From IMG/VR virus record IMGVR_UViG_3300008110_000165, positions 1 to 37,555 of that record: a stretch of DNA of 37,555 bases. One strand, written 5' to 3'. The notes beneath the pieces are model-generated. The model saw only the letters and a list, made by a program, of their open reading frames with translations, made no database searches and had not been told where the DNA came from. Every line of letters starts with the position of its first letter. The first letter of the stretch is position 1. This document shows positions 24,153 through 35,849 of this stretch, piece after piece. Source of the DNA: a virus. The translations under genes and the position numbers were made by a program.

Positions 24153-24153
24153 A

Positions 24154-24406: not shown

Positions 24407-24435
24407 ACTATAACACAAAAGGAAAAACCTGTCAA
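24407..24435 (-). promoter_or_regulatory. early promoter of the 24154-23952 pair
   Basis: TTGACA-N17-TATAGT. The spacer has GGTTTTTCC, a variant of the dyad core. Confidence 0.8.
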
Positions 24436-24662: not shown

Positions 24663-24942
24663 ACTTTCTCTCTGGAATTAATGCGTTGTCTTCAATGTAC
24701 TTGAGTACGGCGTAAAAATGTTCACGCGGCAAAGTGTCCTGGTATATAATGCTGGCATGTAGTTGTTCTACATCAAATGTTTCATTAAACTCTTCCAATG
24801 CGGAAATGTTATGCGCAACATCTCCCGCATGCATTTTAAACATACTCAAGTCATCTTCATCTTTACTAAACTGTCCCACAGTAGCAATGAGTGGAAGCAT
24901 GAGGCGGTTAATTGCGACAACGTGTGTTTTTATGTTAGACAT
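24649..24942 (-). CDS. unrecognised early protein
   Basis: 97 aa, largely helical (MSNIKTHVVAINRLMLPLIA ... FYAVLKYIEDNALIPERKYACI). It overlaps the previous stop by one base and the next gene by 14, so it is the third gene of a four-gene operon. Confidence 0.7.
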   Translation of the reverse strand: MSNIKTHVVAINRLMLPLIATVGQFSKDEDDLSMFKMHAGDVAHNISALEEFNETFDVEQLHASIIYQDTLPREHFYAVLKYIEDNALIPERKYACI

Positions 24943-25169
24943 TATAATACCTCCAGGTCAATTTCCATATCAGCCGCCACAAGCTCTAACATGTCTGCTA
25001 GCCGTGTCTTGTCTGCCTTGCTCAGTGTCTCCACTGCGTCATCGTAAAAATACTGCATAAGGTCTGCGTCTAGTTCTACATGCCCGTCCATGTAGTCTAA
25101 TCCTGCATCACCTTTGCTGTATATTTTGTCAAATGCATCTGCAATTCGTTTGTTTAGTTCTTTACTCAT
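24942..25169 (-). CDS. small acidic helical early protein
   Basis: 75 aa (MSKELNKRIADAFDKIYSKG ... EIDLEVL), acidic and helical. It starts 16 bases after the 25186 gene with AAGGA before its ATG. Second gene of the operon; function unknown. Confidence 0.7.
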   Translation of the reverse strand: MSKELNKRIADAFDKIYSKGDAGLDYMDGHVELDADLMQYFYDDAVETLSKADKTRLADMLELVAADMEIDLEVL

Positions 25170-25185
25170 TTTATTTCCTTATTAA

Positions 25186-25440
25186 TTAAAGCACACTTGC
25201 CGCAAAGTTGTCAAAGCCTACTTCTGTGTCTTCAAAAGTATAACGCTCTACGCCGTCTGCATCTTCAAATATTACTTTGCCGTCAACACGTTCGTAGCTA
25301 AACCACTCGTCGTTAATCCAAGCTTCGCCACAAGCATACTCTCCGTCCATTAACAGCTCATTGCCGTTCATAGTGTAAGTAGCTTTGCAGTCGTCAATAA
25401 TAAGCGTCAAACCTTCAACGCTAGTTGCTAGTACTTCCAT
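25186..25440 (-). CDS. unrecognised early protein
   Basis: 84 aa from ATG 25440 (MEVLATSVEGLTLIIDDCKA ...), beta-rich and acidic with several Trp and Tyr (EAWINDEWFSYERVDGKV). AAAAGGAGC precedes it. First gene of the operon running to 24432. Confidence 0.7.
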   Translation of the reverse strand: MEVLATSVEGLTLIIDDCKATYTMNGNELLMDGEYACGEAWINDEWFSYERVDGKVIFEDADGVERYTFEDTEVGFDNFAASVL

Positions 25441-25470
25441 TTTTTTGCTCCTTTTGTTTAGTGTCCTTGT

Positions 25471-25499
25471 AGTGTACAACAGGTTTTTCCTTTTGTCAA
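25471..25499 (-). promoter_or_regulatory. early promoter of the four-gene operon 25440-24432
   Basis: TTGACA-N17-TACACT; the spacer core is GGAAAAACC. Confidence 0.8.
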
Positions 25500-25513
25500 C
25501 CTGCTGTACTAAT

Positions 25514-25534
25514 AACCCTACTGTGTGTAGGGTT
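25514..25534 (-). other. stem-loop between a stop codon and the next promoter
   Basis: AACCCTAC and GTAGGGTT form an 8-bp stem with loop TGTGT. The T-run is on the plus side; on the minus strand only a weak T-rich tail follows. Confidence 0.55.
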
Positions 25535-25539
25535 TTTGT

Positions 25540-25755
25540 TTATGCTACAATTACAAAATTTTCTGCGCTTAGGTCTGCTACTGCTTTAGCAATTAGCTTG
25601 GGGAGGTCTTCCTGCAGACAGTCCCCTGAAACATATACTGCATTTTTACTGTTAGGGCGTTGCATTGAGTTGAACGCAACATAGAAACGACTGCATTTTA
25701 CTGCGTGTTTGTTAGGGGATTTTACTACACGGACTTGCGCTGTGCTTGCTTGCAT
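25540..25755 (-). CDS. unrecognised early protein
   Basis: 71 aa (MQASTAQVRVVKSPNKHAVK ...), basic N-terminal half and a helical C-terminus (LPKLIAKAVADLSAENFVIVA). Single-gene unit with its own promoter and AAAAGGAGC leader. Confidence 0.7.
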   Translation of the reverse strand: MQASTAQVRVVKSPNKHAVKCSRFYVAFNSMQRPNSKNAVYVSGDCLQEDLPKLIAKAVADLSAENFVIVA

Positions 25756-25785
25756 TGTTTAGCTCCTTTTGTTTAGTGTGTAAGT

Positions 25786-25814
25786 ATAATAACATCGGTT
25801 TTGCCGTTTGTCAA
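25786..25814 (-). promoter_or_regulatory. early promoter of the 25540 gene
   Basis: TTGACA-N17-TATTAT with core GGCAAAACC; the sequence just upstream of it is CCGG. Confidence 0.85.
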
Positions 25815-25862
25815 CCGGTGCTGGCAATACCCACACAAAAAGGTCGGCTATTCAATCAAAGT

Positions 25863-25894
25863 GACAGGGAAGACCACTAACAATCTTCCCTGTC
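25863..25894 (-). other. stem-loop downstream of the HTH gene
   Basis: GACAGGGAAGA and TCTTCCCTGTC form a perfect 11-bp stem with a 10-base loop. No strong T-run follows on the minus strand. It lies in the gene-free 25815-25940 stretch between the HTH gene and the next promoter. Confidence 0.6.
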
Positions 25895-25940
25895 GGGTGC
25901 CTACGGGAGCGAATCGCAGGGCTTTTCCTCTAGGTGAGGA

Positions 25941-26234
25941 TTAAAGGGTAATGCCCAAGGCCTGTGCCTTGTAACCTAGTGCGGTCAATTTGCGTGACGC
26001 TTCACCATGGCGGTATTCAGTAACTTCAACATTATTACCTGCAACACGGCTATTGCTGTATACAGCATAACCACGCTGACGAATAACACTGATAGTGGCA
26101 GTAGGATTCTTAATGCCAAAACGCTTGGCGATCTGTGCCTCTGTCAATACTTCTTTGTCCAATACCAATGCCTTGAACAATTTGCCTTGTTTTGTTTCTA
26201 AATCGAAACGCTTTAGTTTACTAGTTGATTTCAT
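25941..26234 (-). CDS. helix-turn-helix DNA-binding protein, candidate regulator
   Basis: 97 aa, basic. Residues about 32-55 (TEAQIAKRFGIKNPTATISVIRQRG) form a helix-turn-helix, followed by YAVYSNSRVAGNNVEVTEYRHG that looks like the wing of a winged helix. In phages such proteins act as repressors or activators. Its promoter is different from those of the surrounding early genes: it lacks the GGTNNNACC core and has a long leader of about 48 bases. This makes it a candidate regulator of the other promoters; that link is inference. Confidence 0.75.
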   Translation of the reverse strand: MKSTSKLKRFDLETKQGKLFKALVLDKEVLTEAQIAKRFGIKNPTATISVIRQRGYAVYSNSRVAGNNVEVTEYRHGEASRKLTALGYKAQALGITL

Positions 26235-26282
26235 TTTTGTTTCCTCTATATAAAGTGGCTGTCTTTCTTACAGCATGTCACT

Positions 26283-26311
26283 ATTATATACTGGACTTAA
26301 TTACAATGCAA
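26283..26311 (-). promoter_or_regulatory. atypical promoter of the HTH gene
   Basis: TTGCAT-N17-TATAAT without the GGTNNNACC core or the shared leader. Its leader contains a short inverted repeat, GCTGTAAGAAAGACAGC. Confidence 0.7.
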
Positions 26312-26328
26312 GAGTCAATTTAACCAAA

Positions 26329-26448
26329 TTAGGCGCCATTGTAGGGACTATACTCTTCAAGGTCATCCTCTTGAGTTTGTTCCTTTTGTGCATTTTGGCG
26401 AATCATTTGATCCATGACTTTTTGCAGTTCGGTAAAATCGTATGCCAT
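26329..26448 (-). CDS. very small acidic early protein
   Basis: 39 aa (MAYDFTELQKVMDQMIRQNA ... EDDLEEYSPYNGA), helical then acidic. AAGGAATAATAG before its ATG overlaps the stop region of the upstream gene. Last gene of the five-gene operon from 27109; supported by tight coupling only. Confidence 0.6.
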   Translation of the reverse strand: MAYDFTELQKVMDQMIRQNAQKEQTQEDDLEEYSPYNGA

Positions 26449-26453
26449 ATCTA

Positions 26454-26681
26454 TTATTCCTTAAAAGAGTTAATCAAATCCACAGTGGAATCTTCCACAC
26501 TATCTACTTCATCAATACATGCCAGTATCATTAGTTCGCACACCACTTGGGCCTGCATCCTATCCTTAACTGGCAATGAACGGATAAACATCGTCACCTG
26601 TTCAGTGCTGTCCAAACTCCACATAATGTCTGCGAACAGACGTTGCTTCTTTGACAGACCTTGTATTACAATATCGGACAT
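26454..26681 (-). CDS. small helical early protein, paralogue of the 22958 gene
   Basis: 75 aa. STEQVTMFIRSLPVKDRMQAQ aligns with TLEEVQKFISTLPSKEQANAQ of the 22958 protein, and both continue with a helical LxACxxxV segment and an acidic end. Starts one base after the upstream stop. Function unknown. Confidence 0.7.
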   Translation of the reverse strand: MSDIVIQGLSKKQRLFADIMWSLDSTEQVTMFIRSLPVKDRMQAQVVCELMILACIDEVDSVEDSTVDLINSFKE

Positions 26682-26682
26682 A

Positions 26683-26859
26683 TTAACTTTCCCAATCAGT
26701 TGGAGTTAGATCTACCACATCTTCAATCTCAGTCCACAAGGCATATACCTTGGCACTTAGCTGTTTCTTCACAGCTGGGTTTAGATATAGCTGTTGGATT
26801 AGTGCATCCACATCGTCCAACAGGTTATCAATTTGGGCCAGTGTATCTTCAGTCTTCAT
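26683..26859 (-). CDS. small helical early protein
   Basis: 58 aa from ATG 26859 (MKTEDTLAQIDNLLDDVDAL ...), strongly helical, acidic, coiled-coil-like. It starts one base after the stop of the 26861 gene. Confidence 0.7.
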   Translation of the reverse strand: MKTEDTLAQIDNLLDDVDALIQQLYLNPAVKKQLSAKVYALWTEIEDVVDLTPTDWES

Positions 26860-26860
26860 A

Positions 26861-27109
26861 TTACCCCCAGTTCTTCTTATCGCCAAACTGTTCGTTATAT
26901 GCATAACCAGCCATATAATCTTCTACCTGCTCTGCTGTCATTACGGGCGGGGTAAGCATGGGAGCATTACCTGTGCCATTTGGATAGTAATGGGGCACCT
27001 GTCCTCGACCGTAGTAGCTGTCTGCACTGCCCCTATCAAATGGGCTACCATGCTTGTGGGTGTAGACCTTGCCATTAAACTCTGTCTTGTATTCTTCGTC
27101 TAACATCAT
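26861..27109 (-). CDS. unrecognised Tyr/Gly-rich early protein
   Basis: 82 aa (MMLDEEYKTEFNGKVYTHKH ...), rich in Tyr, Gly and Pro in the middle (YYGRGQVPHYYPNGTGNAP), possibly disordered. First gene of a five-gene operon; CGGAGC precedes its start. Confidence 0.7.
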   Translation of the reverse strand: MMLDEEYKTEFNGKVYTHKHGSPFDRGSADSYYGRGQVPHYYPNGTGNAPMLTPPVMTAEQVEDYMAGYAYNEQFGDKKNWG

Positions 27110-27138
27110 CTTCAGCTCCGTTTCCTTAGTGTGCCTAC

Positions 27139-27167
27139 AGTATACTACCGGTTTTGCCTTTTGTCAA
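27139..27167 (-). promoter_or_regulatory. early promoter of the five-gene operon 27109-26329
   Basis: TTGACA-N17-TATACT with core GGCAAAACC. Confidence 0.85.
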
Positions 27168-27171
27168 CCGT

Positions 27172-27357
27172 TTAATCGTAATATTCTGCCTGCCGCATGC
27201 CCAAGGTGCCTGCCCACATGACCAATAGACCTACCCCACTGACCACAACCCCAGTTGCCAATGCTAGGTTGTCCATGCTCAACTCTATGCTACCTACACC
27301 ACCTAGTGTCATCAAAAGACCTACGGTGAATACGAACATTGCTTGATTTGCTGTCAT
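27172..27357 (-). CDS. small two-helix membrane protein
   Basis: 61 aa with hydrophobic segments MFVFTVGLLMTLGGVGSI and LATGVVVSGVGLLVMWAG. It starts in a 4-base ATGA overlap with the 27354 gene. Likely host inner membrane; role unknown. Confidence 0.7.
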   Translation of the reverse strand: MTANQAMFVFTVGLLMTLGGVGSIELSMDNLALATGVVVSGVGLLVMWAGTLGMRQAEYYD

Positions 27358-27671
27358 ACTGCCTCCAATTCTTTTGCAGGGTAAGTGATAGAGCCTTCAT
27401 ACTCCAACTGGCTACGCTCAAACTCTGTGAGGTAGTCATCTGCCACCACTTCAAAGTTGATAATGTATTCTTTGAAGTATTCGTTGTCAGACTCAATTTT
27501 ATCACGCAGGGCCATGACCACTTCAGCCACACGGTGGAACTCCTTAAAGTTCTTGACCACATAGTCGTTGCCGCCTTTGAACTTCCAGTAGCTAGGGCAA
27601 GCACCCTTGCCGTCCCAATCGTGGGCGCCATAGTTTTCCTGGATTTGAGTTGTGATTAGCAGTTTAGACAT
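27354..27671 (-). CDS. conserved small phage protein
   Basis: 105 aa. MSKLLITTQIQENYGAHDWDG followed by YWKFKGGNDYVV is a string I recall from other phage proteins of unknown function. It has a His/Asp/Trp-rich N-terminal patch and an acidic C-terminus. First gene of a two-gene unit. Confidence 0.75.
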   Translation of the reverse strand: MSKLLITTQIQENYGAHDWDGKGACPSYWKFKGGNDYVVKNFKEFHRVAEVVMALRDKIESDNEYFKEYIINFEVVADDYLTEFERSQLEYEGSITYPAKELEAV

Positions 27672-27700
27672 TGTTCGCTCCTTTGTTTAACTTAGCCACT

Positions 27701-27729
27701 AGTATAGCACCGGTTGTACCACCTGTCAA
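27701..27729 (-). promoter_or_regulatory. early promoter of the 27354-27172 pair
   Basis: TTGACA-N17-TATACT with GGTACAACC core. The leader is of the second type (GGCTAAGTTAAACAAAGGAG). Confidence 0.85.
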
Positions 27730-27734
27730 CCACT

Positions 27735-27950
27735 TTAATCAAAAGCCACACCCTTGTCCTGGGCTTTACCCTCCCAGTGCGTCTTGGTCACGCACAAGGC
27801 TCTGATCTTGCCCCCAAGTGGGGTCACCTGATCCTGTACCACCTTCAAGCTCTGTTGACAAGTGGCCTTGTCCTTCTGTACAATACCCTGCTTGCTCATG
27901 AAGTCACCAGCAGGACTGAGGAACGCCAGGATCAGGATGTATTCAGTCAT
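27735..27950 (-). CDS. unrecognised early protein, possibly exported
   Basis: 71 aa from ATG 27950. The N-terminus MTEYILILAFLSPAGDF is hydrophobic and could be a membrane anchor or signal; a basic helical region with two Cys follows. It overlaps the upstream gene by 8 bases with GAGG as ribosome site. Confidence 0.65.
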   Translation of the reverse strand: MTEYILILAFLSPAGDFMSKQGIVQKDKATCQQSLKVVQDQVTPLGGKIRALCVTKTHWEGKAQDKGVAFD

Positions 27951-28155
27951 CGTATGCAACCTCGCCCATCTCTGTGACTTCTTCTTCCACAACGTGGAGA
28001 TCGATGATGCGAGCCGTTTGGTCTTCGTTGCTTACACCTTGGAACGCCGTACGGAACGATTGGTGCTCGGCTAGGAAGTCAAACACATCCATGCGGTCCC
28101 AACCTTCAGGCACTTCCAACCATTGATTGATGATTGTGGTAACTTGAACTTTCAT
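27943..28155 (-). CDS. unrecognised acidic early protein
   Basis: 70 aa (MKVQVTTIINQWLEVPEGWD ...), beginning with a beta strand followed by WLEVPEGWDRMDVFDFLAEHQSF, and ending acidic. AAGGAGC precedes its ATG, in the space after the 28165 gene. Second gene of a three-gene operon. Confidence 0.7.
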   Translation of the reverse strand: MKVQVTTIINQWLEVPEGWDRMDVFDFLAEHQSFRTAFQGVSNEDQTARIIDLHVVEEEVTEMGEVAYDD

Positions 28156-28164
28156 ATCAGCTCC

Positions 28165-28422
28165 TTAGGCGTATTCGTAAAACTTGACGGAAGGGTCCAA
28201 CTGTTGCAACTCCTTAGCCACCTGTGTCAGTTCACGGTAGCGAGCCTGTACTTGGCTACGTGGCAGCTCACCATCGCAAGTCAAGTTCTCTGGACTCAAT
28301 GCGCTGTCCACAATCTCGGCAATACGCTGACGGTCTTCAGCAATGGTAAGGTCCAAAGCCTTGATGCCGAACACGCTGTTGAATTGGTTACGCTGTTTAA
28401 CGAACTGTGCTAGTGCTTTCAT
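28165..28422 (-). CDS. unrecognised helical early protein
   Basis: 85 aa (MKALAQFVKQRNQFNSVFGI ...), mostly helical (YRELTQVAKELQQLDPSVKF). First gene of the operon with 27943 and 27735. AAAAGGAGC lies before the start. Confidence 0.7.
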   Translation of the reverse strand: MKALAQFVKQRNQFNSVFGIKALDLTIAEDRQRIAEIVDSALSPENLTCDGELPRSQVQARYRELTQVAKELQQLDPSVKFYEYA

Positions 28423-28452
28423 CTATCGCTCCTTTTGTTTAACTTAACCTAT

Positions 28453-28481
28453 AGTATAGCAGAGTCGGTATTACCTGTCAA
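28453..28481 (-). promoter_or_regulatory. early promoter of the 28165-27735 operon
   Basis: TTGACA-N17-TATACT with GGTAATACC; leader of the GTTAAACAAAAGGAGC type. Confidence 0.85.
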
Positions 28482-28495
28482 GCTCTATCTGCCAT

Positions 28496-28527
28496 TAAAA
28501 AGGACCGTTGTTTTTACACAACGGCCC
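28496..28527 (-). terminator. intrinsic terminator of the 28572 gene
   Basis: On the minus strand GGGCCGTTGT pairs with ACAACGGTCC (one mismatch), then TTTTT. The inner part is a 16-bp GTTG-N8-CAAC palindrome (28507-28522). Confidence 0.8.
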
Positions 28528-28550
28528 GGCACTCAGCGTCTTACGCATAC

Positions 28551-28562
28551 GCTACAGCGGGA
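28551..28562 (+). repeat. isolated copy of GCTACAGCGGGA
   Basis: The same 12-mer found four times at 35579-35849, here between the 28572 stop and its terminator. Confidence 0.6.
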
Positions 28563-28571
28563 AAGTACGGT

Positions 28572-28940
28572 TTAGAAGGGAGCGTCTTCCATGTCAGCCA
28601 AGGATGCAGTTGCTTTAGCTTTGGCTTCTTTCATAACTGTATCTGCTACAGTTGTCTTCTTGGCCTTGGCAGGCTTGGCTGCTTGCAACTCTACCTTGCG
28701 CTTAGTTGCTTCACGTTGAATAGCTTCTGCCTTCTCAACGTTACCATCCGAGAAGTCAATGCTCATGAGGTAGCTGACAACTTCAGCTTTGGTCATGGCA
28801 CGTGGAAGTTCGATAAGGTCGATGTCTTCGTGATTGCCCTTGACAAGTACTTTGACACGTGTCATGTCATTAGCAAAACGAACTTTGGTACCGCCGTTAA
28901 CTTTAGAAGTACCGGCTACAGTGAACAGTTTATCAGTCAT
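28572..28940 (-). CDS. Lys/Ala-rich early protein
   Basis: 122 aa. The N-terminal half is beta-like (KVRFANDMTRVKVLVKGNHEDIDLIELP). The C-terminal half is a helical Lys/Ala-rich stretch (AAKPAKAKKTTVADTVMKEA), as in histone-like or nucleic-acid-binding tails, ending in acidic DMEDAPF. It has a strong isolated promoter, a long leader and its own terminator, suggesting high independent expression. DNA or RNA binding is inference. Confidence 0.75.
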   Translation of the reverse strand: MTDKLFTVAGTSKVNGGTKVRFANDMTRVKVLVKGNHEDIDLIELPRAMTKAEVVSYLMSIDFSDGNVEKAEAIQREATKRKVELQAAKPAKAKKTTVADTVMKEAKAKATASLADMEDAPF

Positions 28941-28992
28941 TTAAAATCTCCGTGTGTGAATGTGTGCGTTAGAACTATCTCTAACAATTAAT

Positions 28993-29021
28993 ATTATACT
29001 GCCTTTTGGGCAGTGTGTCAA
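28993..29021 (-). promoter_or_regulatory. strong promoter of the 28572 gene with a different dyad
   Basis: TTGACA-N17-TATAAT. The spacer holds CTGCCCAAAAGGCAG, a distinct inverted repeat instead of GGTNNNACC. Confidence 0.85.
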
Positions 29022-29024
29022 CCG

Positions 29025-29150
29025 TTATTTGGTTGCTTCTTTTGTAACACTTTGTACCTTGGTCACGGCACTGTCACCAATTTTGGCGATACCACCAAAA
29101 CCTACAGTTGCAATCACGATACCAAATATTACTGCAATGATATATCCCAT
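29025..29150 (-). CDS. very small membrane protein
   Basis: 41 aa from ATG 29150 with AAGGAGATAGAG before it. One transmembrane segment (YIIAVIFGIVIATVGFGGIA) followed by a Lys/Thr-rich tail. It lies directly after the tRNA in the same unit, so it must be read from the 29729 promoter through the tRNA. Confidence 0.65.
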   Translation of the reverse strand: MGYIIAVIFGIVIATVGFGGIAKIGDSAVTKVQSVTKEATK

Positions 29151-29173
29151 CTCTATCTCCTTCTGTGTGTAAG

Positions 29174-29251
29174 TGGTGGGCCCTCCGTGAGTCGAACACG
29201 GCACCAATGGATTATGAGTCCACTGCTCTAACCAACATGAGCTAAGGGCCC
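29174..29251 (-). tRNA. tRNA-Ile2 (anticodon CAT, lysidine type)
   Basis: 78 nt with a 7-bp acceptor stem (GGGCCCT/AGGGCCC) and encoded CCA. The anticodon loop CTCATAA gives CAU. The TTAGCTCA D-arm start and GACTCATAATC anticodon arm match the E. coli and T4 tRNA-Ile2 type rather than tRNA-Met. In such tRNAs C34 is modified to lysidine so that it reads AUA. It lies within an operon between the 29260 gene and the 41-aa gene. Confidence 0.92.
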
Positions 29252-29259
29252 GTTAAAAT

Positions 29260-29697
29260 TTACGCCGCTTCCTTCTCTGTACAAAAATCAAAGAACTCCA
29301 TAACGGTGCCATCAAAGATAGCTTCGTTCTTGTCCGACATAGTGAGCCCAAACATATTGCACCCACGGTCAGTAATACGCACTCGCAAACCTTGTGCGTC
29401 TTGGTACACATGGTACTCGTAGTCTTGTCCGCAGTCCGTAGCTGTTGCTGGGTACAAGTAAAACTGTCCAGGGCCATCGCCTTTGAAGTTGCTGACCAAT
29501 TGTGCAGCCAAACAGCCCATGCCGTTAGCAACCTTACGGGTCTCTCCTACCTGGAGGCCATTGGTGATAGCATCAAAGCCCGCAAGGAACTCTGCTAGCT
29601 CTAGACCGTGACCTGATGGATAGCCATCGTACTGACGGTACATGTTGATGATAATGTCTTGCTCGTCATAGACGAAAGTGAGTGAACGTGTTCCCAT
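29260..29697 (-). CDS. conserved phage protein (MGTRSL family)
   Basis: 145 aa. MGTRSLTFVYDEQDIIINMYRQYDGYPSGHG is a highly characteristic start that I recall from many phage and some bacterial proteins of unknown function. The rest is acidic, with LVSNFKGDGPGQFYLYP. First gene of a unit that also contains the tRNA and the 41-aa protein. Confidence 0.82.
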   Translation of the reverse strand: MGTRSLTFVYDEQDIIINMYRQYDGYPSGHGLELAEFLAGFDAITNGLQVGETRKVANGMGCLAAQLVSNFKGDGPGQFYLYPATATDCGQDYEYHVYQDAQGLRVRITDRGCNMFGLTMSDKNEAIFDGTVMEFFDFCTEKEAA

Positions 29698-29728
29698 TTA
29701 TAGCTCCTTGCTGTGTTAGTGTGTGTTA

Positions 29729-29757
29729 ATTATACTGTCGGTTGTTTCGTTTGTCAA
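29729..29757 (-). promoter_or_regulatory. early promoter of the 29260-tRNA-29025 unit
   Basis: TTGACA-N17-TATAAT; the spacer has GAAACAACC, a weak match to the core. Confidence 0.85.
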
Positions 29758-29762
29758 CCAAA

Positions 29763-29987
29763 TTAGACATAAAAATCTGTTGTAAATTTACAACGATCGT
29801 AGATGACTTCCCGGACTGCTGTGTCCATTAGCTCACCATACTGTTCTGGATTTTGTTCAGCAATGAGCCTCATAACTTGATAGGTCTTGGACCAGTTTAG
29901 GCCAGCAGCCTTGGCCAGCTCTACAATCTTACCTGCGACCACATCGCCTTGGTCGGTGTACATGGCAAAGTCTTGGACGTTGATCAT
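29763..29987 (-). CDS. unrecognised early protein
   Basis: 74 aa (MINVQDFAMYTDQGDVVAGK ...), helical in the middle (WSKTYQVMRLIAEQNPEQYGELM). It starts in a 4-base overlap with the 29984 gene. Its last codons contain a copy of the 16-bp palindrome. Confidence 0.7.
   Translation of the reverse strand: MINVQDFAMYTDQGDVVAGKIVELAKAAGLNWSKTYQVMRLIAEQNPEQYGELMDTAVREVIYDRCKFTTDFYV
29779..29794. repeat. 16-bp palindrome GTTG-N8-CAAC
   Basis: GTTGTAAATTTACAAC, a perfect palindrome at the 3' end of the 29763 gene, just upstream of the next promoter. Confidence 0.5.
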
Positions 29988-30259
29988 GCTTGCTCCTTCT
30001 TAAAGAATACTACCTGGATTCGATTGTTTGCACGATCTTCAACAAACACATACTCTGTGCTTTCTGTGAAGTTTGCGTTGTTGTGTGTAAGCACCTTCTT
30101 GGCAATGATCTTAACACTACGCTCGTTAATGCTGTCTGTCACATCATAGCCGGGGCCATAGTTCTTAGCACCGTCTGCTGTGTAGCTGTACTTGCCATTA
30201 CAACCGCACATGCAACCACGCTTGCCGTTGTATACTTTAACAATGTTACTGATGTCCAT
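29984..30259 (-). CDS. conserved small phage protein with a Cys cluster
   Basis: 91 aa. MDISNIVKVYNGKRGCMCGCNGKYSYT includes CMCGC, a likely metal-binding or turn motif, and matches a string I recall in other phages. The C-terminus is beta-like. CAGGAGC precedes the ATG; it is coupled to the 29763 gene. Confidence 0.75.
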   Translation of the reverse strand: MDISNIVKVYNGKRGCMCGCNGKYSYTADGAKNYGPGYDVTDSINERSVKIIAKKVLTHNNANFTESTEYVFVEDRANNRIQVVFFKKEQA

Positions 30260-30291
30260 TTTGCGCTCCTGCTTTGTTAGTGTATGTGTCT

Positions 30292-30320
30292 ATTGTACAA
30301 CCAATTCTGCTCTTTGTCAA
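30292..30320 (-). promoter_or_regulatory. early promoter of the 29984-29763 pair
   Basis: TTGACA-N17-TACAAT; the spacer has a diverged core. Leader of the ACATACACTAACAAAGCAGG type. Confidence 0.85.
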
Positions 30321-30560
30321 TCAATATTCTGCAGAGACCGTACCCGCAGCCTGGTCATAGGTCAGGAATACCTTGCAGGAGTCTGTCTCACGCTCGTCTG
30401 TCTTGTAGGTCACTAGGTAGCAGAACTGTCCGCCATTGGTGATGCCCAAGAACTTAGCACCTGTAAACTTGTCTTCTTTGTAGCCCGCAAGATTGATTGC
30501 ACGGGTGAGTGCAGGGGCTGAGAATTGTGTGATATATGAAAGCATTTGCGCTGTGATCAT
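30321..30560 (-). CDS. unrecognised early protein
   Basis: 79 aa from ATG 30560 (MITAQMLSYITQFSAPALTR ...), helical start and beta-rich end (GQFCYLVTYKTDERETDSCKVFLTY). Single-gene unit with AAAGGAGC before its start. Confidence 0.7.
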   Translation of the reverse strand: MITAQMLSYITQFSAPALTRAINLAGYKEDKFTGAKFLGITNGGQFCYLVTYKTDERETDSCKVFLTYDQAAGTVSAEY

Positions 30561-30588
30561 ATTTGCTCCTTTGTTTAACTTAGCCACT

Positions 30589-30617
30589 AGTATAGCTTCG
30601 GTTAAACCTTTTGTCAA
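30589..30617 (-). promoter_or_regulatory. early promoter of the 30321 gene
   Basis: TTGACA-N17-TATACT with GGTTTAACC; leader of the GTTAAACAAAGGAGC type. Confidence 0.85.
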
Positions 30618-30627
30618 CCAGAATTTT

Positions 30628-30643
30628 GTTGTATTTTTACAAC
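30628..30643. repeat. 16-bp palindrome GTTG-N8-CAAC
   Basis: GTTGTATTTTTACAAC, one base after the 30645 stop and 11 bases upstream of a promoter -35 box. Confidence 0.55.
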
Positions 30644-30644
30644 A

Positions 30645-30896
30645 TCAATCGTCTATCTGACCATTAGCTCGGAACCAGGTCTTGATGACCTTGACGATAG
30701 CATCCGCCTCATCATCACGCACAGGTTTCTCACTCTCAGGGATGTTGACTCTAGGGAACTCACAACGATCTTCAATGAGGTCAATACAAGCACGGGCAGT
30801 GACCACCATCAACTCCCATAGACGGGGGTCACTGCACTCTGCCTCTGTGAAGCCTGAAACTTTCTTTAAATCGTCTTGCCATTTGAATTGTGTCAT
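30645..30896 (-). CDS. unrecognised early protein
   Basis: 83 aa from ATG 30896 (MTQFKWQDDLKKVSGFTEAE ...), helical and acidic. It starts 7 bases after the YubB-like gene and is the last gene of a four-gene operon. Confidence 0.7.
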   Translation of the reverse strand: MTQFKWQDDLKKVSGFTEAECSDPRLWELMVVTARACIDLIEDRCEFPRVNIPESEKPVRDDEADAIVKVIKTWFRANGQIDD

Positions 30897-30903
30897 ATCA
30901 CTC

Positions 30904-31482
30904 TTACTTAGCGTCTTCTTCTTCTTCGTTCTCTTCTTCCCACTCAGCCATGTATTCACTGATGCAGAACATTTCATCCAACGCTTCAGGTAACTCTTCT
31001 TTGACCTGCTCGCTAGTCATACCGCCCAAGTCATAGTAGTCATCTATGAAGTCTTCCCACACACCTGCGAAGCACATGCCACCTTCATAGTAGTAGGCAC
31101 GAACAGAGAAGCCCATGTCCACCAACTTCTCGTATGCGGCAATAGGAGGAGACCAGGCACTGTCAAACGATGTAGTGATGCGACCGTTCTCAATCTCAGC
31201 AGTCATCCCATCACCACCCACATCCCACTTGGTGCCCCACTCGTTGACACAATAGTCATACCAGTTGCCATAGCCATGGACTTGCAGGTTACGCTCGGTG
31301 TCCTCCATGAGCTTCTTCTGCTCGTCTGGATCACCTACACTGCCTGCTACAATCTTCAACTCTTCAGGCACGGGGATGAATTCATTTAGGAACTCGCCAC
31401 GGTTAAGAGCATCACGAGCACGCTCAAGCATTGCTGGGTCTTCGTGGGCCAGCTCGACCACATTATTACACCAATTTGGCAT
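30904..31482 (-). CDS. YubB/DUF1281-like protein
   Basis: 192 aa from ATG 31482 with AAGGAG at good spacing. The N-terminus MPNWCNNVVEL and the block WSPPIAAYEKLVDMGFSVRAYYYEGGMCFAG are characteristic of the DUF1281/YubB ferredoxin-like family, common in phages and plasmids, function unknown. The tail is Glu-rich. It overlaps the 31466 gene by 17 bases. Confidence 0.85.
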   Translation of the reverse strand: MPNWCNNVVELAHEDPAMLERARDALNRGEFLNEFIPVPEELKIVAGSVGDPDEQKKLMEDTERNLQVHGYGNWYDYCVNEWGTKWDVGGDGMTAEIENGRITTSFDSAWSPPIAAYEKLVDMGFSVRAYYYEGGMCFAGVWEDFIDDYYDLGGMTSEQVKEELPEALDEMFCISEYMAEWEEENEEEEDAK

Positions 31483-31639
31483 TGTCAATCTCCTTCAGTT
31501 GTTCGTCAAGTTCCAGTGTGTCTGCAAGACTGTCAGCAGTGCTAGCCAACACTCGCAGGACCTTAATGCGTTCTTCAACGGTCAAGACTTCTTCAAGTCT
31601 CTTCATGCACCGTTTCATCAATGCTACCCGACCCATCAT
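31466..31639 (-). CDS. very small helical early protein
   Basis: 57 aa (MMGRVALMKRCMKRLEEVLT ... DEQLKEIDNAKLV), basic and helical at the start, acidic at the end. It overlaps both neighbours (4 and 17 bases), which supports real translation. ATG 31636 is the alternative start. Confidence 0.65.
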   Translation of the reverse strand: MMGRVALMKRCMKRLEEVLTVEERIKVLRVLASTADSLADTLELDEQLKEIDNAKLV

Positions 31640-31908
31640 GCGGCACTCAGCATGTTAGCCGGCACACGCCACATACCTGTATTGGTAGCCACTGTGACAT
31701 ACTTACGACCCACCTTGTTCACCGTGCCCTTATAGGTCATACCGTTCTTGCTAGAGGTGAACTGAACATTGGCCCCAGTTCGCATGGTGAAGATGTTCTT
31801 CTGTGTGATACGGCTACGGGCAAACTTGACGGCATCCATGATGCTGTTTAGTTCATCGTTAGTAAAGGCACCTTGCAGGATCTCTGCATTGACAGTTTGA
31901 ATTGACAT
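31636..31908 (-). CDS. small early protein with a KOW-like C-terminus
   Basis: 90 aa (MSIQTVNAEILQGAFTNDEL ...). The helical N-terminus is followed by TGANVQFTSSKNGMTYKGTVNKVGRKYVTVAT, a pattern like short beta-barrel, nucleic-acid-associated domains; inference only. First gene of a four-gene operon. Confidence 0.7.
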   Translation of the reverse strand: MSIQTVNAEILQGAFTNDELNSIMDAVKFARSRITQKNIFTMRTGANVQFTSSKNGMTYKGTVNKVGRKYVTVATNTGMWRVPANMLSAA

Positions 31909-31937
31909 ACTCGCTCCTTTTGTTTAACTTAGCCTAT

Positions 31938-31966
31938 AGTATAGCACTGGTAAAACCGTTTGTCAA
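31938..31966 (-). promoter_or_regulatory. early promoter of the 31908-30645 operon
   Basis: TTGACA-N17-TATACT with the core in the opposite orientation, GGTTTTACC; leader of the GTTAAACAAAAGGAGC type. Confidence 0.85.
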
Positions 31967-31976
31967 GTCTTTTAGT

Positions 31977-31992
31977 GTTGTATTTTTACAAC
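31977..31992. repeat. 16-bp palindrome GTTG-N8-CAAC
   Basis: GTTGTATTTTTACAAC, identical to the 30628 copy. It covers the stop codon of the 31986 gene and is 10 bases upstream of a -35 box. Confidence 0.55.
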
Positions 31993-32279
31993 ACCCCTTC
32001 ATTCTCTAGCTCTTGGACCACCTCATTGAACAAGCTCTCCAACTCTTCAGGAGTCATTCTGTTGCTTTTTTGCACCGGGGAGGCACTCCGGCCCTTGACC
32101 AATGCAGACCCTTTGACATACATCTTAGCATGGTGCTCAGGGCAATAGCTCTTGCCCTTGATGACCTTACAGCCACAGTAGGCAACATGACTGGTCTTGG
32201 GATCTTGTTTAGGGCCAATCCATTGACAGCCCCACTCCTTCTCAATCATGCGTTGGGTCACGCTATCGGACAAGTTCAT
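31986..32279 (-). CDS. GcrA-like Cys/His protein
   Basis: 97 aa. GCQWIGPKQD ... VAYCGCKVIKGKSYCPEHHAKMY resembles the C-terminal Cys/His block of GcrA, a sigma70-associated cell-cycle regulator of Alphaproteobacteria (C.W...CG.....YC..H....Y). The N-terminal helix-turn-helix of GcrA is missing; the C-terminus here is acidic and helical. It may contact host RNA polymerase or be a general zinc module. It starts two bases after the AAA+ gene's stop codon region. Confidence 0.55.
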   Translation of the reverse strand: MNLSDSVTQRMIEKEWGCQWIGPKQDPKTSHVAYCGCKVIKGKSYCPEHHAKMYVKGSALVKGRSASPVQKSNRMTPEELESLFNEVVQELENEGVL

Positions 32280-32280
32280 A

Positions 32281-33132
32281 TTAGGCCCTCTTCATACATG
32301 TAAGAGCAGCCACTGACATCCACTTGTCAGGCATTGCCGCACGAAGGTCTGCTACCTTAATGACCATACGCAAGCTGAGCTCACGCATCTTGTCCTTGTT
32401 CACATCAATGAACTGTACCACTTCTGCTTTCTGCTCGTCAGTCAAGTCGTATACATCCAGCATGCCATCGTTCACAATCTGCTTGATGCGCAAGATCTTC
32501 TCACGGGCTGTGTCAATGGTAAGGTCAAGATAGTGACAGCGTGACTCCAATGCATCCAAGTGATCACGAAGCTTCTTACTGCGCACATGCTCGAACTTGA
32601 TGTTGGTGATAAAGATGGCACTGCCACAGAACTCAAAGCTGTTGGGGATACCTTCAGCTCGTAGCACACGGCTGTCAGTGTTCCAAGAGATGGTGCGCTT
32701 CTTGCTAGAGTCAAGAGCAGCCTTCAAAATATTAAGACTCAGCTCATCAAGCAGGACGCTGTCACAGTCGTCAAATACTAGTACGCTACCCTTCTTGCTG
32801 TACTCATAGAGTTTGCTGTACAGACCAATGGCACTCATAGCACCCTTAAGGATCTCATAGCGTGGCTTACGGTCGCCCATCTTGTCAAACAGGTCATCCT
32901 TGGTCAGTACTGCTTCTACACCAAAGCTCTTACCAACACCTGGAGGGCCACTCACAATCATAGCACGGACGTCACCCTTGCGCACACCCTTAGTCATGTC
33001 TTCAAGGATAGTGAAACGCTCTTTAATACGGGTGATGATCTCCTCATCAGTCTCGCGGGCCACTGCCTTCTCACGAGCCTTAATAGCTTCTTGATCAAAG
33101 TCCAAAAGATTAGTTGCGGGCGCTTTTGCCAT
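32281..33132 (-). CDS. AAA+ ATPase
   Basis: 283 aa. Walker A GPPGVGKS (62-69), Walker B SVLVFDDCDSVL (D121/D122), sensor 1 FITN (about 174-177) and arginine-finger candidate in ALESRCHYLDL (R198) define an AAA+ module. An N-terminal helical part precedes it and a helical lid follows. The substrate is unknown; in phages such proteins may remodel DNA or protein complexes. It is the largest gene of the early block and is followed by the GcrA-like gene in the same unit. Confidence 0.85.
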   Translation of the reverse strand: MAKAPATNLLDFDQEAIKAREKAVARETDEEIITRIKERFTILEDMTKGVRKGDVRAMIVSGPPGVGKSFGVEAVLTKDDLFDKMGDRKPRYEILKGAMSAIGLYSKLYEYSKKGSVLVFDDCDSVLLDELSLNILKAALDSSKKRTISWNTDSRVLRAEGIPNSFEFCGSAIFITNIKFEHVRSKKLRDHLDALESRCHYLDLTIDTAREKILRIKQIVNDGMLDVYDLTDEQKAEVVQFIDVNKDKMRELSLRMVIKVADLRAAMPDKWMSVAALTCMKRA

Positions 33133-33163
33133 TCTATGCTCCTGTGTGTGTTAATAAGTGTCT

Positions 33164-33192
33164 AGTATACTATCTGTTTTTGGTTTTGTCAA
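33164..33192 (-). promoter_or_regulatory. early promoter of the AAA+ gene
   Basis: TTGACA-N17-TATACT; the spacer (AAACC then AAAAAC) has only a weak match to the core. Confidence 0.85.
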
Positions 33193-33902
33193 GCCTGTTG
33201 CATAAAGACCACAAAGCCTGTAGTGTCTTTCTTTGCACGGCCCTTAGCCTTAAGACCAAGTACCACACCCTTGGGATCCAAGAAGCGCAAGTCTGTGTCA
33301 TCAGCATTGAACACTTCTTTGCCCTTGTATGTTGCAGGGATCTTGTCGAACACAACGGTGACATTCATGTTCTTGCTGATAGCCCAGTCAGCGTCCTTGC
33401 CATTGCCGTCTGCTTGGCTAAAGGTCAAGTGGTAGTTCGCAATGCCTTCTACCTTGCGCTTGGGCACTTTGGTGTAGTCATAAAACTGTACATCTGGGAA
33501 GCATTCAAATACATTCAAGCCTGGCAGCATGTCATACTTCTCCCAGCTCAAGTCGCTAGTACCATTCAAGCGGAACACGGGCGTCAAACCCTTGCGCTCT
33601 GCGAACTTGATAGCCCGCTTGATGTCTGTGTACAGGTCCAGCATGAAGTCTTGTCGTTGCTCAAAGAAGTAACGAGCCTTACGGATGCGAGCCTTTTGTA
33701 TAGTGTTGGTGGTCTCACCCTTCTTGAACATACCACCACGTCCGGCAGTGTTCAAGCATGCCGCCTTACAACCAGCTGTGGCCTTGGGGCATGTATTGTA
33801 GCCGCTCACATCTGCTGGAGCAAGGTGAAGGATGAACGAAAGGTAACCTAGTTTAGTACCCTTTTGGATCTTGGGGTTGGCAGTTGAAAGTAACTTGAAC
33901 AT
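33189..33902 (-). CDS. GP88 family protein
   Basis: 237 aa. SGYNTCPKATAGCKAACLNTAGRGG and IQKARIRKARYFFEQRQDFM match the Gene-88 (GP88) family, known from phages; the three Cys in CPKATAGCKAAC may bind metal or an Fe-S cluster, function unknown. Family length is normal. It has its own early promoter and its stop overlaps the AAA+ gene promoter. Confidence 0.85.
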   Translation of the reverse strand: MFKLLSTANPKIQKGTKLGYLSFILHLAPADVSGYNTCPKATAGCKAACLNTAGRGGMFKKGETTNTIQKARIRKARYFFEQRQDFMLDLYTDIKRAIKFAERKGLTPVFRLNGTSDLSWEKYDMLPGLNVFECFPDVQFYDYTKVPKRKVEGIANYHLTFSQADGNGKDADWAISKNMNVTVVFDKIPATYKGKEVFNADDTDLRFLDPKGVVLGLKAKGRAKKDTTGFVVFMQQA

Positions 33903-33932
33903 CTTGCGCTCCTTTTGTTAGTGTATGTCATT

Positions 33933-33961
33933 ATTATACAACCGGTTTTACCAGATGTCAA
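33933..33961 (-). promoter_or_regulatory. early promoter of the GP88 gene
   Basis: TTGACA-N17-TATAAT with CTGGTAAAACCGG. The -35 box overlaps the stop codon of the upstream 49-aa gene. Confidence 0.88.
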
Positions 33962-34107
33962 CCTTTTTCTTTGTTGTTTTTTTGCAACTCTTTCTCCTGC
34001 CTGTAGGCACTCCGGGGATCATCCAAGCAGGCCCAGTAGATCAAGTGAGCCACAAAGAACACTATGGTAAAATGAAACAGGACCTTGACCCACTTGATCT
34101 TAGGCAA
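33958..34107 (-). CDS. very small membrane protein with a TTG start
   Basis: 49 aa. The TTG follows directly and in frame after the TGA of the 34108 gene. One hydrophobic segment (VLFHFTIVFFVAHLIYWAC) is followed by a charged tail ending KNNKEKG. A candidate small inner-membrane protein; support is the coupled position and the clear membrane segment. Confidence 0.5.
   Translation of the reverse strand: MPKIKWVKVLFHFTIVFFVAHLIYWACLDDPRSAYRQEKELQKNNKEKG
33973..33988. repeat. 16-bp palindrome GTTG-N8-CAAC
   Basis: GTTGTTTTTTTGCAAC, 12 bases upstream of the GP88 promoter -35 box and inside the 3' end of the 49-aa gene. Confidence 0.5.
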
Positions 34108-34389: not shown

Positions 34390-34629
34390 TTAGAACTCCT
34401 CTCCAGCATAGCCGTAGTCTTCATCAGTACCAAACCCAGCGGATGCCAATGCATCGCCATCGTCTTCATAGTCGGGTTCGTAGTCTTCCTCCTGCTCCAT
34501 CATGAGAGCAAAGATCTCCTCCACTGTGGCAACCGGAACATCATAGCGTTCTGCAATCTCCGCAAAGCTCAAGTCGCCCGAGTTCAGCTCGTCCTGGATA
34601 TCAAAAACTACGTCTTTTAGTGCGCCCAT
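34390..34629 (-). CDS. small acidic protein with an HTH-like helix pair
   Basis: 79 aa. LSFAEIAERYDVPVATVEEIFALM has the spacing of a helix-turn-helix, as in sigma region 4 or MerR-like helices. The second half is extremely acidic (EEDYEPDYEDDGD), which is unusual for a DNA binder and could mimic DNA or bind RNA polymerase. First gene of the operon ending at 33958. Confidence 0.65.
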   Translation of the reverse strand: MGALKDVVFDIQDELNSGDLSFAEIAERYDVPVATVEEIFALMMEQEEDYEPDYEDDGDALASAGFGTDEDYGYAGEEF

Positions 34630-34658
34630 TGTGTCAGCTCCTTAGTGTGTAAGCCTTA

Positions 34659-34687
34659 ATTATATGGTAAAACCTACAGTCTGTCAA
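34659..34687 (-). promoter_or_regulatory. early promoter of the 34629-33958 operon
   Basis: TTGACA-N17-TATAAT with the core inverted, AGGTTTTACCA. Confidence 0.85.
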
Positions 34688-34735
34688 CCACTCATTTGAA
34701 AGACCATACACTTTAGTAGGCTTCTCCTGAACCGG

Positions 34736-34764
34736 TTGACAATAGGCAAAACCGGTGCTATACT
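34736..34764 (+). promoter_or_regulatory. plus-strand promoter reading into the DnaA-box array
   Basis: TTGACA-N17-TATACT with GGCAAAACC core. It is the only member of the early promoter family on the plus strand. Transcription would start near 34771, about 120 bases before the first DnaA box. Confidence 0.8.
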
Positions 34765-34796
34765 AGTGGCATAATAAGAAAACGGGTAGACCGACC

Positions 34797-34919
34797 ATGT
34801 GTTCGAACAGTCATACTGGGGGTGGACGTGGAGGCTGCGCGAGCGATTCTGATGGTGGCAAAATAAAAAAGGCCCATCCAAAAGCCCAAAGTTATCCACA
34901 GCTTGTCCACACCCTGTGA
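34797..34919 (+). CDS. possible small Gly-rich protein
   Basis: 40 aa (MCSNSHTGGGRGGCASDSDG ...) directly downstream of the plus-strand promoter. No good ribosome binding site is visible and its last codons run through the first two DnaA boxes, so translation is doubtful. The transcript may matter more than the peptide. Confidence 0.3.
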   Translation: MCSNSHTGGGRGGCASDSDGGKIKKAHPKAQSYPQLVHTL

Positions 34920-34995
34920 ATATCTTTTGGGTTATCCACAGGTTATCCGCCAGTTATCCACAATGCCGGTCCGACTTATCCACAGGTTATCCACA
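34892..34995 (+). repeat. phased DnaA-box array, origin-like
   Basis: Five perfect DnaA boxes TTATCCACA start at 34892, 34932, 34954, 34976 and 34987, all in the same orientation. Two degenerate ones lie at 34903 (TTGTCCACA) and 34943 (TTATCCGCC). Within each group the starts differ by 11 or 22 bases, so the boxes face the same side of the helix. The array sits between the early operons and the divergent plus-strand genes. It fits a host-DnaA-dependent replication origin or a DnaA sink. Confidence 0.85.
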
Positions 34996-34997
34996 GG

Positions 34998-35315
34998 CTA
35001 TTTCTGGACCAAATCTCGGCAAAAGTCCTTACCCGCATCAGGGTTACTACGACAATAGCTAATCATTTCCACCTGTTCCCAATTGGATCTCTGGGCGAAA
35101 CTTCTAGTGTCCACTTCTCGAACCGCTCCCCATTGTGGTTCAGGTCTGGATCTAGAACGACATTCCTCATCACCAGCGCGGTATTTTGCCGTTACTCCCA
35201 CACAATCTCTCCAGTAACTCATACTCATACTATATGTGGTTATCGTCATACTAGGACCTGTAGCGCATCCAGTCATACATATACATGCTGTTACTACTAG
35301 TATAAGAGTTCTCAT
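34998..35315 (-). CDS. small lipoprotein
   Basis: 105 aa from ATG 35315. A hydrophobic signal (MRTLILVVTACICMTGC) ends in a lipobox-like MTGC with Cys17 as the lipidated residue. The mature part has four Cys and many Arg/Ser. It should be anchored in a host membrane facing the periplasm. It is not a clear Rz1 spanin. Its stop is two bases from the last DnaA box; it has its own promoter. Confidence 0.75.
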   Translation of the reverse strand: MRTLILVVTACICMTGCATGPSMTITTYSMSMSYWRDCVGVTAKYRAGDEECRSRSRPEPQWGAVREVDTRSFAQRSNWEQVEMISYCRSNPDAGKDFCRDLVQK

Positions 35316-35347
35316 CACCGTTGGGTCCTTATTCACTATATGAGTAT

Positions 35348-35376
35348 AGTATACAGGATTGATCCGGTTTTGTCAA
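35348..35376 (-). promoter_or_regulatory. early promoter of the lipoprotein gene
   Basis: TTGACA-N17-TATACT. The spacer starts AAACCGG but lacks a full GGTNNNACC. A second overlapping AGTATA copy lies at 35343. Confidence 0.8.
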
Positions 35377-35578
35377 GAGTGTTCTAGAGTGAATATAGAG
35401 TGAAAAACCTCCAGTTTTCAGGGTCAAGGAGCCCTGGACCACCCTGGTTTCCCCCACCTTTTGAGCAGAGTTGACTGAAAATACCTAAGAAATCCTAGTA
35501 AAATTTTTTGGCAGGGTCGTGGTCCAATCGGGTAATAGTCAAATACTTTCGACCATTCTCTCTAAAATATCCTATACT

Positions 35579-35590
35579 GCTACAGCGGGA
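35579..35590 (+). repeat. GCTACAGCGGGA repeat, copy 1
   Basis: First of four direct copies; preceded by TATACT at 35574-35579. Confidence 0.8.
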
Positions 35591-35614
35591 CTTTTTGACC
35601 TTGACCCCCTACAC

Positions 35615-35626
35615 GCTACAGCGGGA
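35615..35626 (+). repeat. GCTACAGCGGGA repeat, copy 2
   Basis: Identical 12-mer, 36 bases after copy 1, extended to CGCTACAGCGGGAAT. Confidence 0.8.
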
Positions 35627-35778
35627 ATGCTAGGTATTGCCTGTACACTGTAACCTTTAGCTAGTATGAGTATATGGTACTTGCCATTGTATGAGTGTGT
35701 GCGTATGCGTACGAGTGTGTATGTATAGTATGAGTTAGAGTCATTACGTGTATGCGTTGTACGTTATATGTGTCTACA

Positions 35779-35790
35779 GCTACAGCGGGA
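35779..35790 (+). repeat. GCTACAGCGGGA repeat, copy 3
   Basis: Identical 12-mer, extended to CTACAGCTACAGCGGGAAT. Confidence 0.8.
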
Positions 35791-35837
35791 ATATAGGGTT
35801 TGTATATGTGTAAGTGATAATATCTAAATGCCCGATA

Positions 35838-35849
35838 GCTACAGCGGGA
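35838..35849 (+). repeat. GCTACAGCGGGA repeat, copy 4
   Basis: Identical 12-mer, extended to AGCTACAGCGGGAATG, about 20 bases before the late-type promoter of the 35881 gene. Confidence 0.8.

What the first reader, a model, noticed from the sequence alone, without database searches (positions are those of the whole stretch)
34892..34995. DnaA-box array with 11-bp phasing in a T4-like phage
Five perfect TTATCCACA boxes and two degenerate ones lie in about 100 bases, all in one orientation. Starts fall at 34892/34903 and 34932/34943/34954/(34965)/34976/34987, i.e. an 11-bp step. T4-type phages do not normally depend on DnaA, so this could be a host-initiated origin for the first round of replication. 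Alternatively it could be a sink that titrates DnaA and stops host initiation.
Basis: partly seen in the sequence, partly recalled or inferred. Interest (0 to 1): 0.85.

Follow-up and report, generated by a model that had tools for sequence, protein, structure and literature searches.

The report
Conserved DnaA-box array in jumbo phage
A lytic giant phage distantly related to T4 carries a short, evolutionarily preserved row of binding sites for its host's replication-starting protein DnaA, placed just behind a strong early promoter and an apparently undescribed structured RNA, which suggests that the phage uses or diverts the host's replication switch early in infection.

Summary
The array is real and selected. 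Five perfect TTATCCACA boxes, the only ones in the 37.5-kb fragment, lie in 104 bp on one strand; 0 of 1000 Markov simulations gave even two together. In the nearest relative (about 81% DNA identity) 45/45 box bases are kept against 24/41 spacer bases (p = 4e-7) with identical spacing. Dense arrays recur in relatives, always 0-3 kb upstream of a GP88-family gene; odd boxes vary mainly where DnaA tolerates it. No DnaA domain IV was found in 12 related records, so host DnaA is the likely reader. The phage is a T4-superfamily jumbo phage, nearest PA5oct by terminase (55%). Origin function is plausible but unproven: no array-specific melting region, no skew signal once gene orientation is accounted for, and the array comes and goes on the tree. 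A simple titration sink does not explain strict spacing. DnaA boxes in lytic phages have a precedent in T5. The array lies 58 nt downstream of a pseudoknotted RNA core found in 51 of 80 relatives, without Rfam match. Verdict: new variant of a known kind; mechanism open.

The parts
34892..34900 (+). perfect DnaA box TTATCCACA
   Evidence: identical in L006
34903..34911 (+). degenerate DnaA box TTGTCCACA (TTGTTCACA in L006)
34932..34940 (+). perfect DnaA box
34943..34951 (+). degenerate site TTATCCGCC (2 mismatches), unchanged in L006
34954..34962 (+). perfect DnaA box
34976..34984 (+). perfect DnaA box
34987..34995 (+). perfect DnaA box, 2 bp from the stop codon of the convergent ORF
34736..34764 (+). 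strong sigma-70-type promoter (TTGACA-17-TATACT, extended -10) that points through the RNA element into the array
   Evidence: 11/12 matches; kept in relatives
34783..34793 (+). 5' hairpin CGG-GTAGA-CCG of the RNA element (CAG..CTG in other relatives; pairs seen by eye, not counted by tool)
34796..34834 (+). core of a conserved structured RNA: TCGAA, covarying hairpin, nearly invariant GGG(G/A)TGGACG, loop-5' strand pseudoknot
   Evidence: no Rfam match
34659..34687 (-). perfect sigma-70-type promoter (12/12) of the leftward early operon, back to back with the + promoter
34870..34887 (-). intrinsic-terminator-like hairpin for leftward transcripts, directly beyond the array
34998..35336 (-). 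small lipoprotein-like ORF (ATG at 35315, signal peptide with TGC lipobox); its 3' end abuts the array
   Evidence: 83% DNA identity to L006
35348..35376 (-). sigma-70-type promoter (11/12) upstream of the small ORF
35579..35849 (+). four identical 12-mers GCTACAGCGGGA (35579, 35615, 35779, 35838) in the same intergenic region; a candidate second set of iterons
   Evidence: 0/100 shuffles reach the count; conserved in L006
33189..33902 (-). GP88-family gene (PF17338) upstream of which the arrays lie in relatives

Best explanation
The array is a functional binding platform for the host's DnaA, on which several DnaA molecules line up on one face of the helix. Shown by sequence: boxes, spacing and orientation are under selection, and the array lies between two convergent early transcription units, 58 nt downstream of a structured RNA core that has its own strong promoter. 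Inferred: its most likely job is that of an initiation site. Host DnaA would assemble there soon after DNA entry, while host RNA polymerase transcribes from the + promoter into the array, and would help open the DNA and seed the first replication fork before the phage's own T4-type replication and recombination machinery (gp41/gp61-type helicase-primase, UvsX, UvsW) takes over. The second set of iterons (GCTACAGCGGGA) in the same 1.2-kb region would then be part of the same composite origin.
For: Box bases 45/45 conserved against 24/41 spacer bases, p = 4e-7, with no change of spacing even where a spacer is almost wholly rewritten. Same-strand spacings across relatives peak at 11, 12 and 22 bp (18, 5 and 5 of 37). 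Off-consensus boxes in arrays vary mainly at box positions 5 and 3, as DnaA tolerates (position 5: 7/14 inside against 2/29 outside, p = 0.003). No DnaA domain IV in 12 related records including a 357-kb one. Strong + promoter firing into the array. A named phage, Limnohabitans phage DC31, has all five of its TTATCCACA boxes within 118 bp of a gene-free gap with tandem repeats and AT-rich repeats beside them, an origin-like layout, near its GP88 gene. Dense clusters lie 0-3 kb upstream of GP88 in 12 of 12 cases found without using the boxes.
Against: The window has no markedly unstable stretch near the array (least stable 50-mer within about 300 bp is only at the 7th percentile), and flanks of array-bearing loci are no less stable than those of array-free ones (p = 0.26). 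Skew split by coding strand shows no switch at the array. The array needs at least nine gains or losses on the GP88 tree, so many relatives apparently replicate without it. T4-type initiation needs no DnaA, and DnaA would load host DnaB rather than the phage helicase (established knowledge).
Confidence: 0.38

Rival explanations
1. DnaA as a transcription regulator or roadblock. The DnaA complex sits where the rightward RNA transcript and the leftward transcript of the small ORF meet, and stops or tunes them, so that the early control region (structured RNA, divergent early promoters) responds to the host's DnaA level.
For: The array lies between the stop codon of the leftward ORF and a leftward terminator, and 58 nt downstream of the RNA core. 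In all 9 loci with both parts close together the array is on the 3' side of the RNA. Frequent gain and loss suits a regulatory site. DnaA/DnaA-box complexes are known to block RNA polymerase (own knowledge: E. coli asnC transcript) and DnaA acts as activator or repressor (PMC8203912, abstract).
Against: The boxes do not overlap a promoter. Array-bearing loci do not lack terminators compared with array-free ones (6/9 against 11/37 with a forward terminator-like site).
Confidence: 0.24
2. A DnaA sink. The array binds DnaA (simple titration, or DnaA-ATP hydrolysis as at E. coli datA) and so keeps the host chromosome from initiating during infection.
For: High-affinity boxes under selection. No need for a melting region, consistent with its absence. 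Repeated gain and loss.
Against: Five strong sites per genome are few against the cellular DnaA pool until the phage DNA is amplified (established knowledge). Exact spacing and helical phase are not needed for simple titration. No exact IHF consensus in the region, an element of datA.
Confidence: 0.22
3. A DNA-entry pause site like the T5 injection stop signal, where DnaA bound to the first injected DNA holds up further transfer.
For: The T5 injection-stop region is described as containing repeats and DnaA boxes (PMC13250531). In T5 one perfect and three one-mismatch boxes lie inside the annotated iss 9140-10149. T5-like phages carry boxes near the left end of the genome.
Against: No terminal repeat or genome end was found near the array here, and T4-type headful packaging gives permuted ends (established knowledge). 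A1/A2-type two-step transfer genes were not looked for. The match to T5 is only the presence of boxes.
Confidence: 0.07
4. A chance or neutral repeat without function.
For: Absent from many relatives.
Against: 0/1000 simulations, boxes conserved over spacers, repeated occurrence at the same place.
Confidence: 0.03

Closest known systems
Bacterial oriC DnaA-box region
   Same: Cluster of the same 9-mer, helically phased; transcription directed toward it; reader is host DnaA
   Different: No melting element specific to it was found, no replication-linked skew signal, inside a phage with its own T4-type replisome; initiation untested
T5 (Demerecviridae) injection-stop / first-step-transfer region DnaA boxes
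   Same: DnaA boxes grouped in a noncoding early region of a lytic phage (PMC13250531)
   Different: Fewer and weaker boxes in T5, tied to a terminal repeat; unrelated phage group; no structured RNA of this kind noted
E. coli datA (DnaA-titrating and DnaA-ATP-hydrolysing locus)
   Same: Group of strong DnaA boxes near an RNA gene, without an unwinding element
   Different: No exact IHF consensus; boxes tightly phased and all in one orientation; on a phage
DnaA boxes of iteron replicons (P1 oriR, RK2 oriV)
   Same: DnaA boxes plus other short direct repeats in one intergenic region
   Different: No Rep initiator gene recognised beside it; whether the GCTACAGCGGGA repeats bind an initiator is unknown. 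P1 and RK2 layouts recalled, not tested
T4 replication origins (oriE, oriF)
   Same: Early promoter firing into an intergenic region; iterons are described for oriE (own knowledge)
   Different: T4 has only three scattered TTATCCACA and no cluster
Limnohabitans phage DC31 intergenic DnaA array
   Same: Five perfect boxes, all that the genome holds, in a gap near a GP88 gene
   Different: Boxes in both orientations, tandem and AT-rich repeats beside them, 76-kb phage, no such RNA found

Membership tests
DnaA-binding array | Several matches to TTATNCACA grouped beyond chance | tested here: met
DnaA-binding array | Boxes and spacing conserved by selection | tested here: met
DnaA-binding array | Bound by DnaA in vitro or in vivo | not testable with these tools
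   needs EMSA, footprinting or ChIP
oriC-type replication origin | Phased DnaA boxes | tested here: met
   11-bp steps within two blocks; 11/12/22-bp spacings in relatives
oriC-type replication origin | Adjacent AT-rich unwinding element | tested here: not met
   7th percentile at best in the window; no difference between array-bearing and array-free loci
oriC-type replication origin | Skew switch not explained by gene orientation | tested here: not met
   GC3 skew by coding strand in the 357-kb relative, 20-kb bins
oriC-type replication origin | Replication starts there | not testable with these tools
   needs read depth during infection
datA-type sink | DnaA boxes with an IHF site | tested here: inconclusive
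   no exact WATCARNNNNTTR in 34600-35400; the 1-mismatch hits mostly coincide with the boxes themselves
datA-type sink | Lowers active DnaA in the cell | not testable with these tools
   needs host initiation assays
T5-type injection stop signal | Lies at the inner end of a first-step-transfer terminal repeat | not tested
   the window is a fragment; the ends of this phage's genome are unknown
T4-type origin | Initiation through T4 factors at a phage promoter R-loop | not testable with these tools
   promoter present, R-loop untested

The most novel reading that the evidence does not exclude
The promoter, the pseudoknotted RNA and the host-DnaA array form one early control unit in which a phage RNA and a host DnaA filament act together on the same DNA, for instance the RNA or its R-loop priming synthesis at a DnaA-opened site. 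That would be a phage origin type built from a host initiator and a phage RNA.
Probability: 0.13. Interest if true: 0.85.

Novelty: new variant of a known kind. Interest (0 to 1): 0.56.

Why it matters
T4-type phages are the textbook case of replication independent of the host initiator. A conserved, phased host-DnaA array in the early control region of T4-superfamily jumbo phages, gained or lost repeatedly at the same place next to a GP88 gene and a structured RNA, says that some of them read, use or divert DnaA. It turns 'do large lytic phages couple to the host cell cycle?' into a question that can be tested with one mutant, and the neighbouring RNA looks like an undescribed family.

Tried and rejected
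Nucleotide search of 33.5-37.6 kb against annotated phages: no match. Phage-encoded DnaA (PF08299): none in 12 records. Local unwinding element: not specific to arrays. Skew: raw change follows gene orientation. Arrays as substitutes for terminators: no. IHF and GATC enrichment: none. Rfam near the array: only chance-level hits. Thermodynamic folding of the RNA strand alone is not remarkable; its support is covariation. Defence-system models for neighbouring genes: none. GP88 structure: confident model (pLDDT 87) but no significant PDB match; the weak top hits include radical-SAM activating enzymes and QueE. The AAA ATPase beside GP88 occurs with and without arrays, so it was not pursued. PA5oct, XacN1, RAS14, Atu_ph07, Phosso, 121Q, Tunturi_5 and T4: no box cluster. 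The held open-access library gave no paper on DnaA boxes in jumbo phages; subscription journals are mostly not in it.

Full report
OBSERVATION. Position 34965 is not a box, and the two blocks of boxes are 40 bp apart, off the 11-bp register. The 37,555-bp window is the whole record held (G000, an IMG/VR fragment) and contains no other perfect box. Simulated sequences with the same order-3 composition have 0.39 boxes on average and never two within 104 bp in 1000 trials.

WHAT THE PHAGE IS. Proteins in the left half match T4-type gp32, UvsX, UvsW-type helicase, gp41 and gp61 families and a large terminase. The terminase is closest to PA5oct/MIJ3-type jumbo phages at 55% identity. The right half is a leftward block of small genes preceded by many copies of strong sigma-70-type promoters (repeat families), that is, an early region (inference). 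The array lies at the upstream end of that block, where transcription changes direction.

ANATOMY. From left to right: GP88-family gene (33189-33902, minus); two small ORFs; a perfect leftward promoter (34687-34659); a strong rightward promoter (34736-34764); a structured RNA element (core 34796-34834); a leftward terminator-like hairpin (34887-34870); the array (34892-34995); a small lipoprotein-like ORF on the minus strand (34998-35336) with its own promoter (35376-35348); then an intergenic stretch with four identical 12-mers GCTACAGCGGGA before the rightward genes. The array therefore lies between convergent transcripts, in the 3' untranslated part of the small ORF and downstream of the RNA.

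SELECTION ON THE BOXES. The nearest relative, L006 (about 81% identical in this stretch), has the same five boxes with the same spacing. Box bases are 45/45 identical, spacers 24/41, degenerate boxes 17/18; Fisher p = 4e-7 for boxes against spacers. One 13-bp spacer is almost wholly rewritten but kept in length. Across array-bearing relatives, same-strand spacings peak at 11 (18 of 37), 12 (5) and 22 bp (5). One-mismatch boxes inside arrays vary at box position 5 in 7 of 14 cases, against 2 of 29 for one-mismatch words elsewhere in the same loci (p = 0.003), as expected of the DnaA consensus TTATNCACA. No DnaA domain IV is encoded in 12 related records, one of 357 kb. I take DnaA binding as well supported but not demonstrated.

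DISTRIBUTION. Of 80 GP88-selected viral loci (67 distinct), nine have a dense cluster (three or more boxes), all 0-3 kb upstream of GP88 although that zone is only 32% of the DNA searched. A second, more divergent GP88 set has three clusters in 78 loci, also all in that zone. Several unrelated contigs found by boxes alone also carry a GP88 gene close by. On a GP88 tree the array needs at least nine gains or losses, and window, L006 and L007 form one array-bearing clade (a gene tree, so transfer between phages is not excluded, and loci with only two boxes were counted as array-bearing there). Among named phages, Limnohabitans phage DC31 has all five of its TTATCCACA in one gap near GP88, and T5-like phages have boxes in the first-injected terminal repeat, which the literature connects with the injection stop signal (PMC13250531). 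PA5oct, T4 and others have no cluster.

MECHANISM TESTS. Origin: no array-specific unstable DNA and no orientation-independent skew switch, although the layout (promoter, array, second iterons) and DC31's repeats are origin-like. Terminator replacement: not supported. IHF: no exact site. None of these excludes an origin, because phage origins can rely on transcription for opening, but they keep the confidence moderate. Simple titration does not explain why spacing is kept. A regulator or roadblock at the convergent junction explains lability and position, and is the main rival.

THE RNA. A short element TCGAA - hairpin - GGG(G/A)TGGACG follows a strong promoter in 51 of 80 relatives, usually within 0.2-2 kb of GP88. 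In 16 distinct sequences of the long form every cell of five proposed pairs is a standard pair, with 15 two-sided changes and a covariation score of 0.51 against 0.18 in shuffles and 0.11 or less in slid controls; this includes a loop-to-5'-strand pair (8 A-U, 8 G-C), i.e. a pseudoknot. The pairs were picked on the same sequences, so the test is not independent. There is no Rfam match in the region. In all nine loci with both parts close together (window included) the array is on the 3' side of the RNA. Whether RNA and array act together is unknown.

VERDICT. A real, conserved array of host-DnaA boxes in a T4-superfamily jumbo phage; a new variant of a known kind (phage DnaA-box clusters exist in T5-like phages). 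Best guess: initiation platform (0.38), then regulator/roadblock (0.24) or sink (0.22).

Noticed in passing
window 34783-34834 (+); L006-L085: Conserved, covarying, pseudoknotted small RNA element with its own strong promoter, in 51 of 80 relatives, no Rfam match; candidate new RNA family.
   Followed up: partly
L008, L013, L014, L020, L033, L048, L052, L055, L068, L074, L083 and others, 3' of the RNA: In array-free relatives the slot after the RNA often holds a covarying hairpin such as GTTAGTTGGCACTAAC or GTAAGTTGGCACTTAC instead of DnaA boxes.
   Followed up: no
window 33189-33902 (-): GP88 (PF17338) is found close to DnaA-box clusters in several unrelated phage groups; it has three invariant cysteines and a confident model with only weak, non-significant radical-SAM/QueE-like matches. 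Function unknown.
   Followed up: partly
window 35579, 35615, 35779, 35838 and 28551 (+): Identical 12-mers GCTACAGCGGGA, four of them in the intergenic region right of the array, conserved in L006.
   Followed up: partly
window 22045-33966: Family of about 14 dispersed near-consensus sigma-70 promoters (minus strand) in front of small early genes.
   Followed up: no
window 32281-33132 (-): AAA ATPase (phrog_1250; AAA_16 just at its cut-off) near GP88 in many relatives, with or without arrays.
   Followed up: no
records of L019/L037 (G021:27117-27210, G022:27347-27440): A seven-box DnaA cluster about 6.7 kb from a second small cluster in two near-identical contigs.
   Followed up: no
L230 3780-4140 (Limnohabitans phage DC31): Tandem repeats and AT-rich repeats next to five DnaA boxes: an origin-like layout in an isolated phage.
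   Followed up: partly
T5 AY543070 6121, 6194 and 9437-9518: T5 has boxes both between divergent promoters of the terminal repeat and inside the annotated injection stop signal.
   Followed up: partly
phages collection: Blast with a synthetic array also hit gokushoviruses, Escherichia phage P483 and Stenotrophomonas phage Salva (in a predicted terminal repeat), so DnaA-box clusters may be common in small and lytic phages.
   Followed up: no
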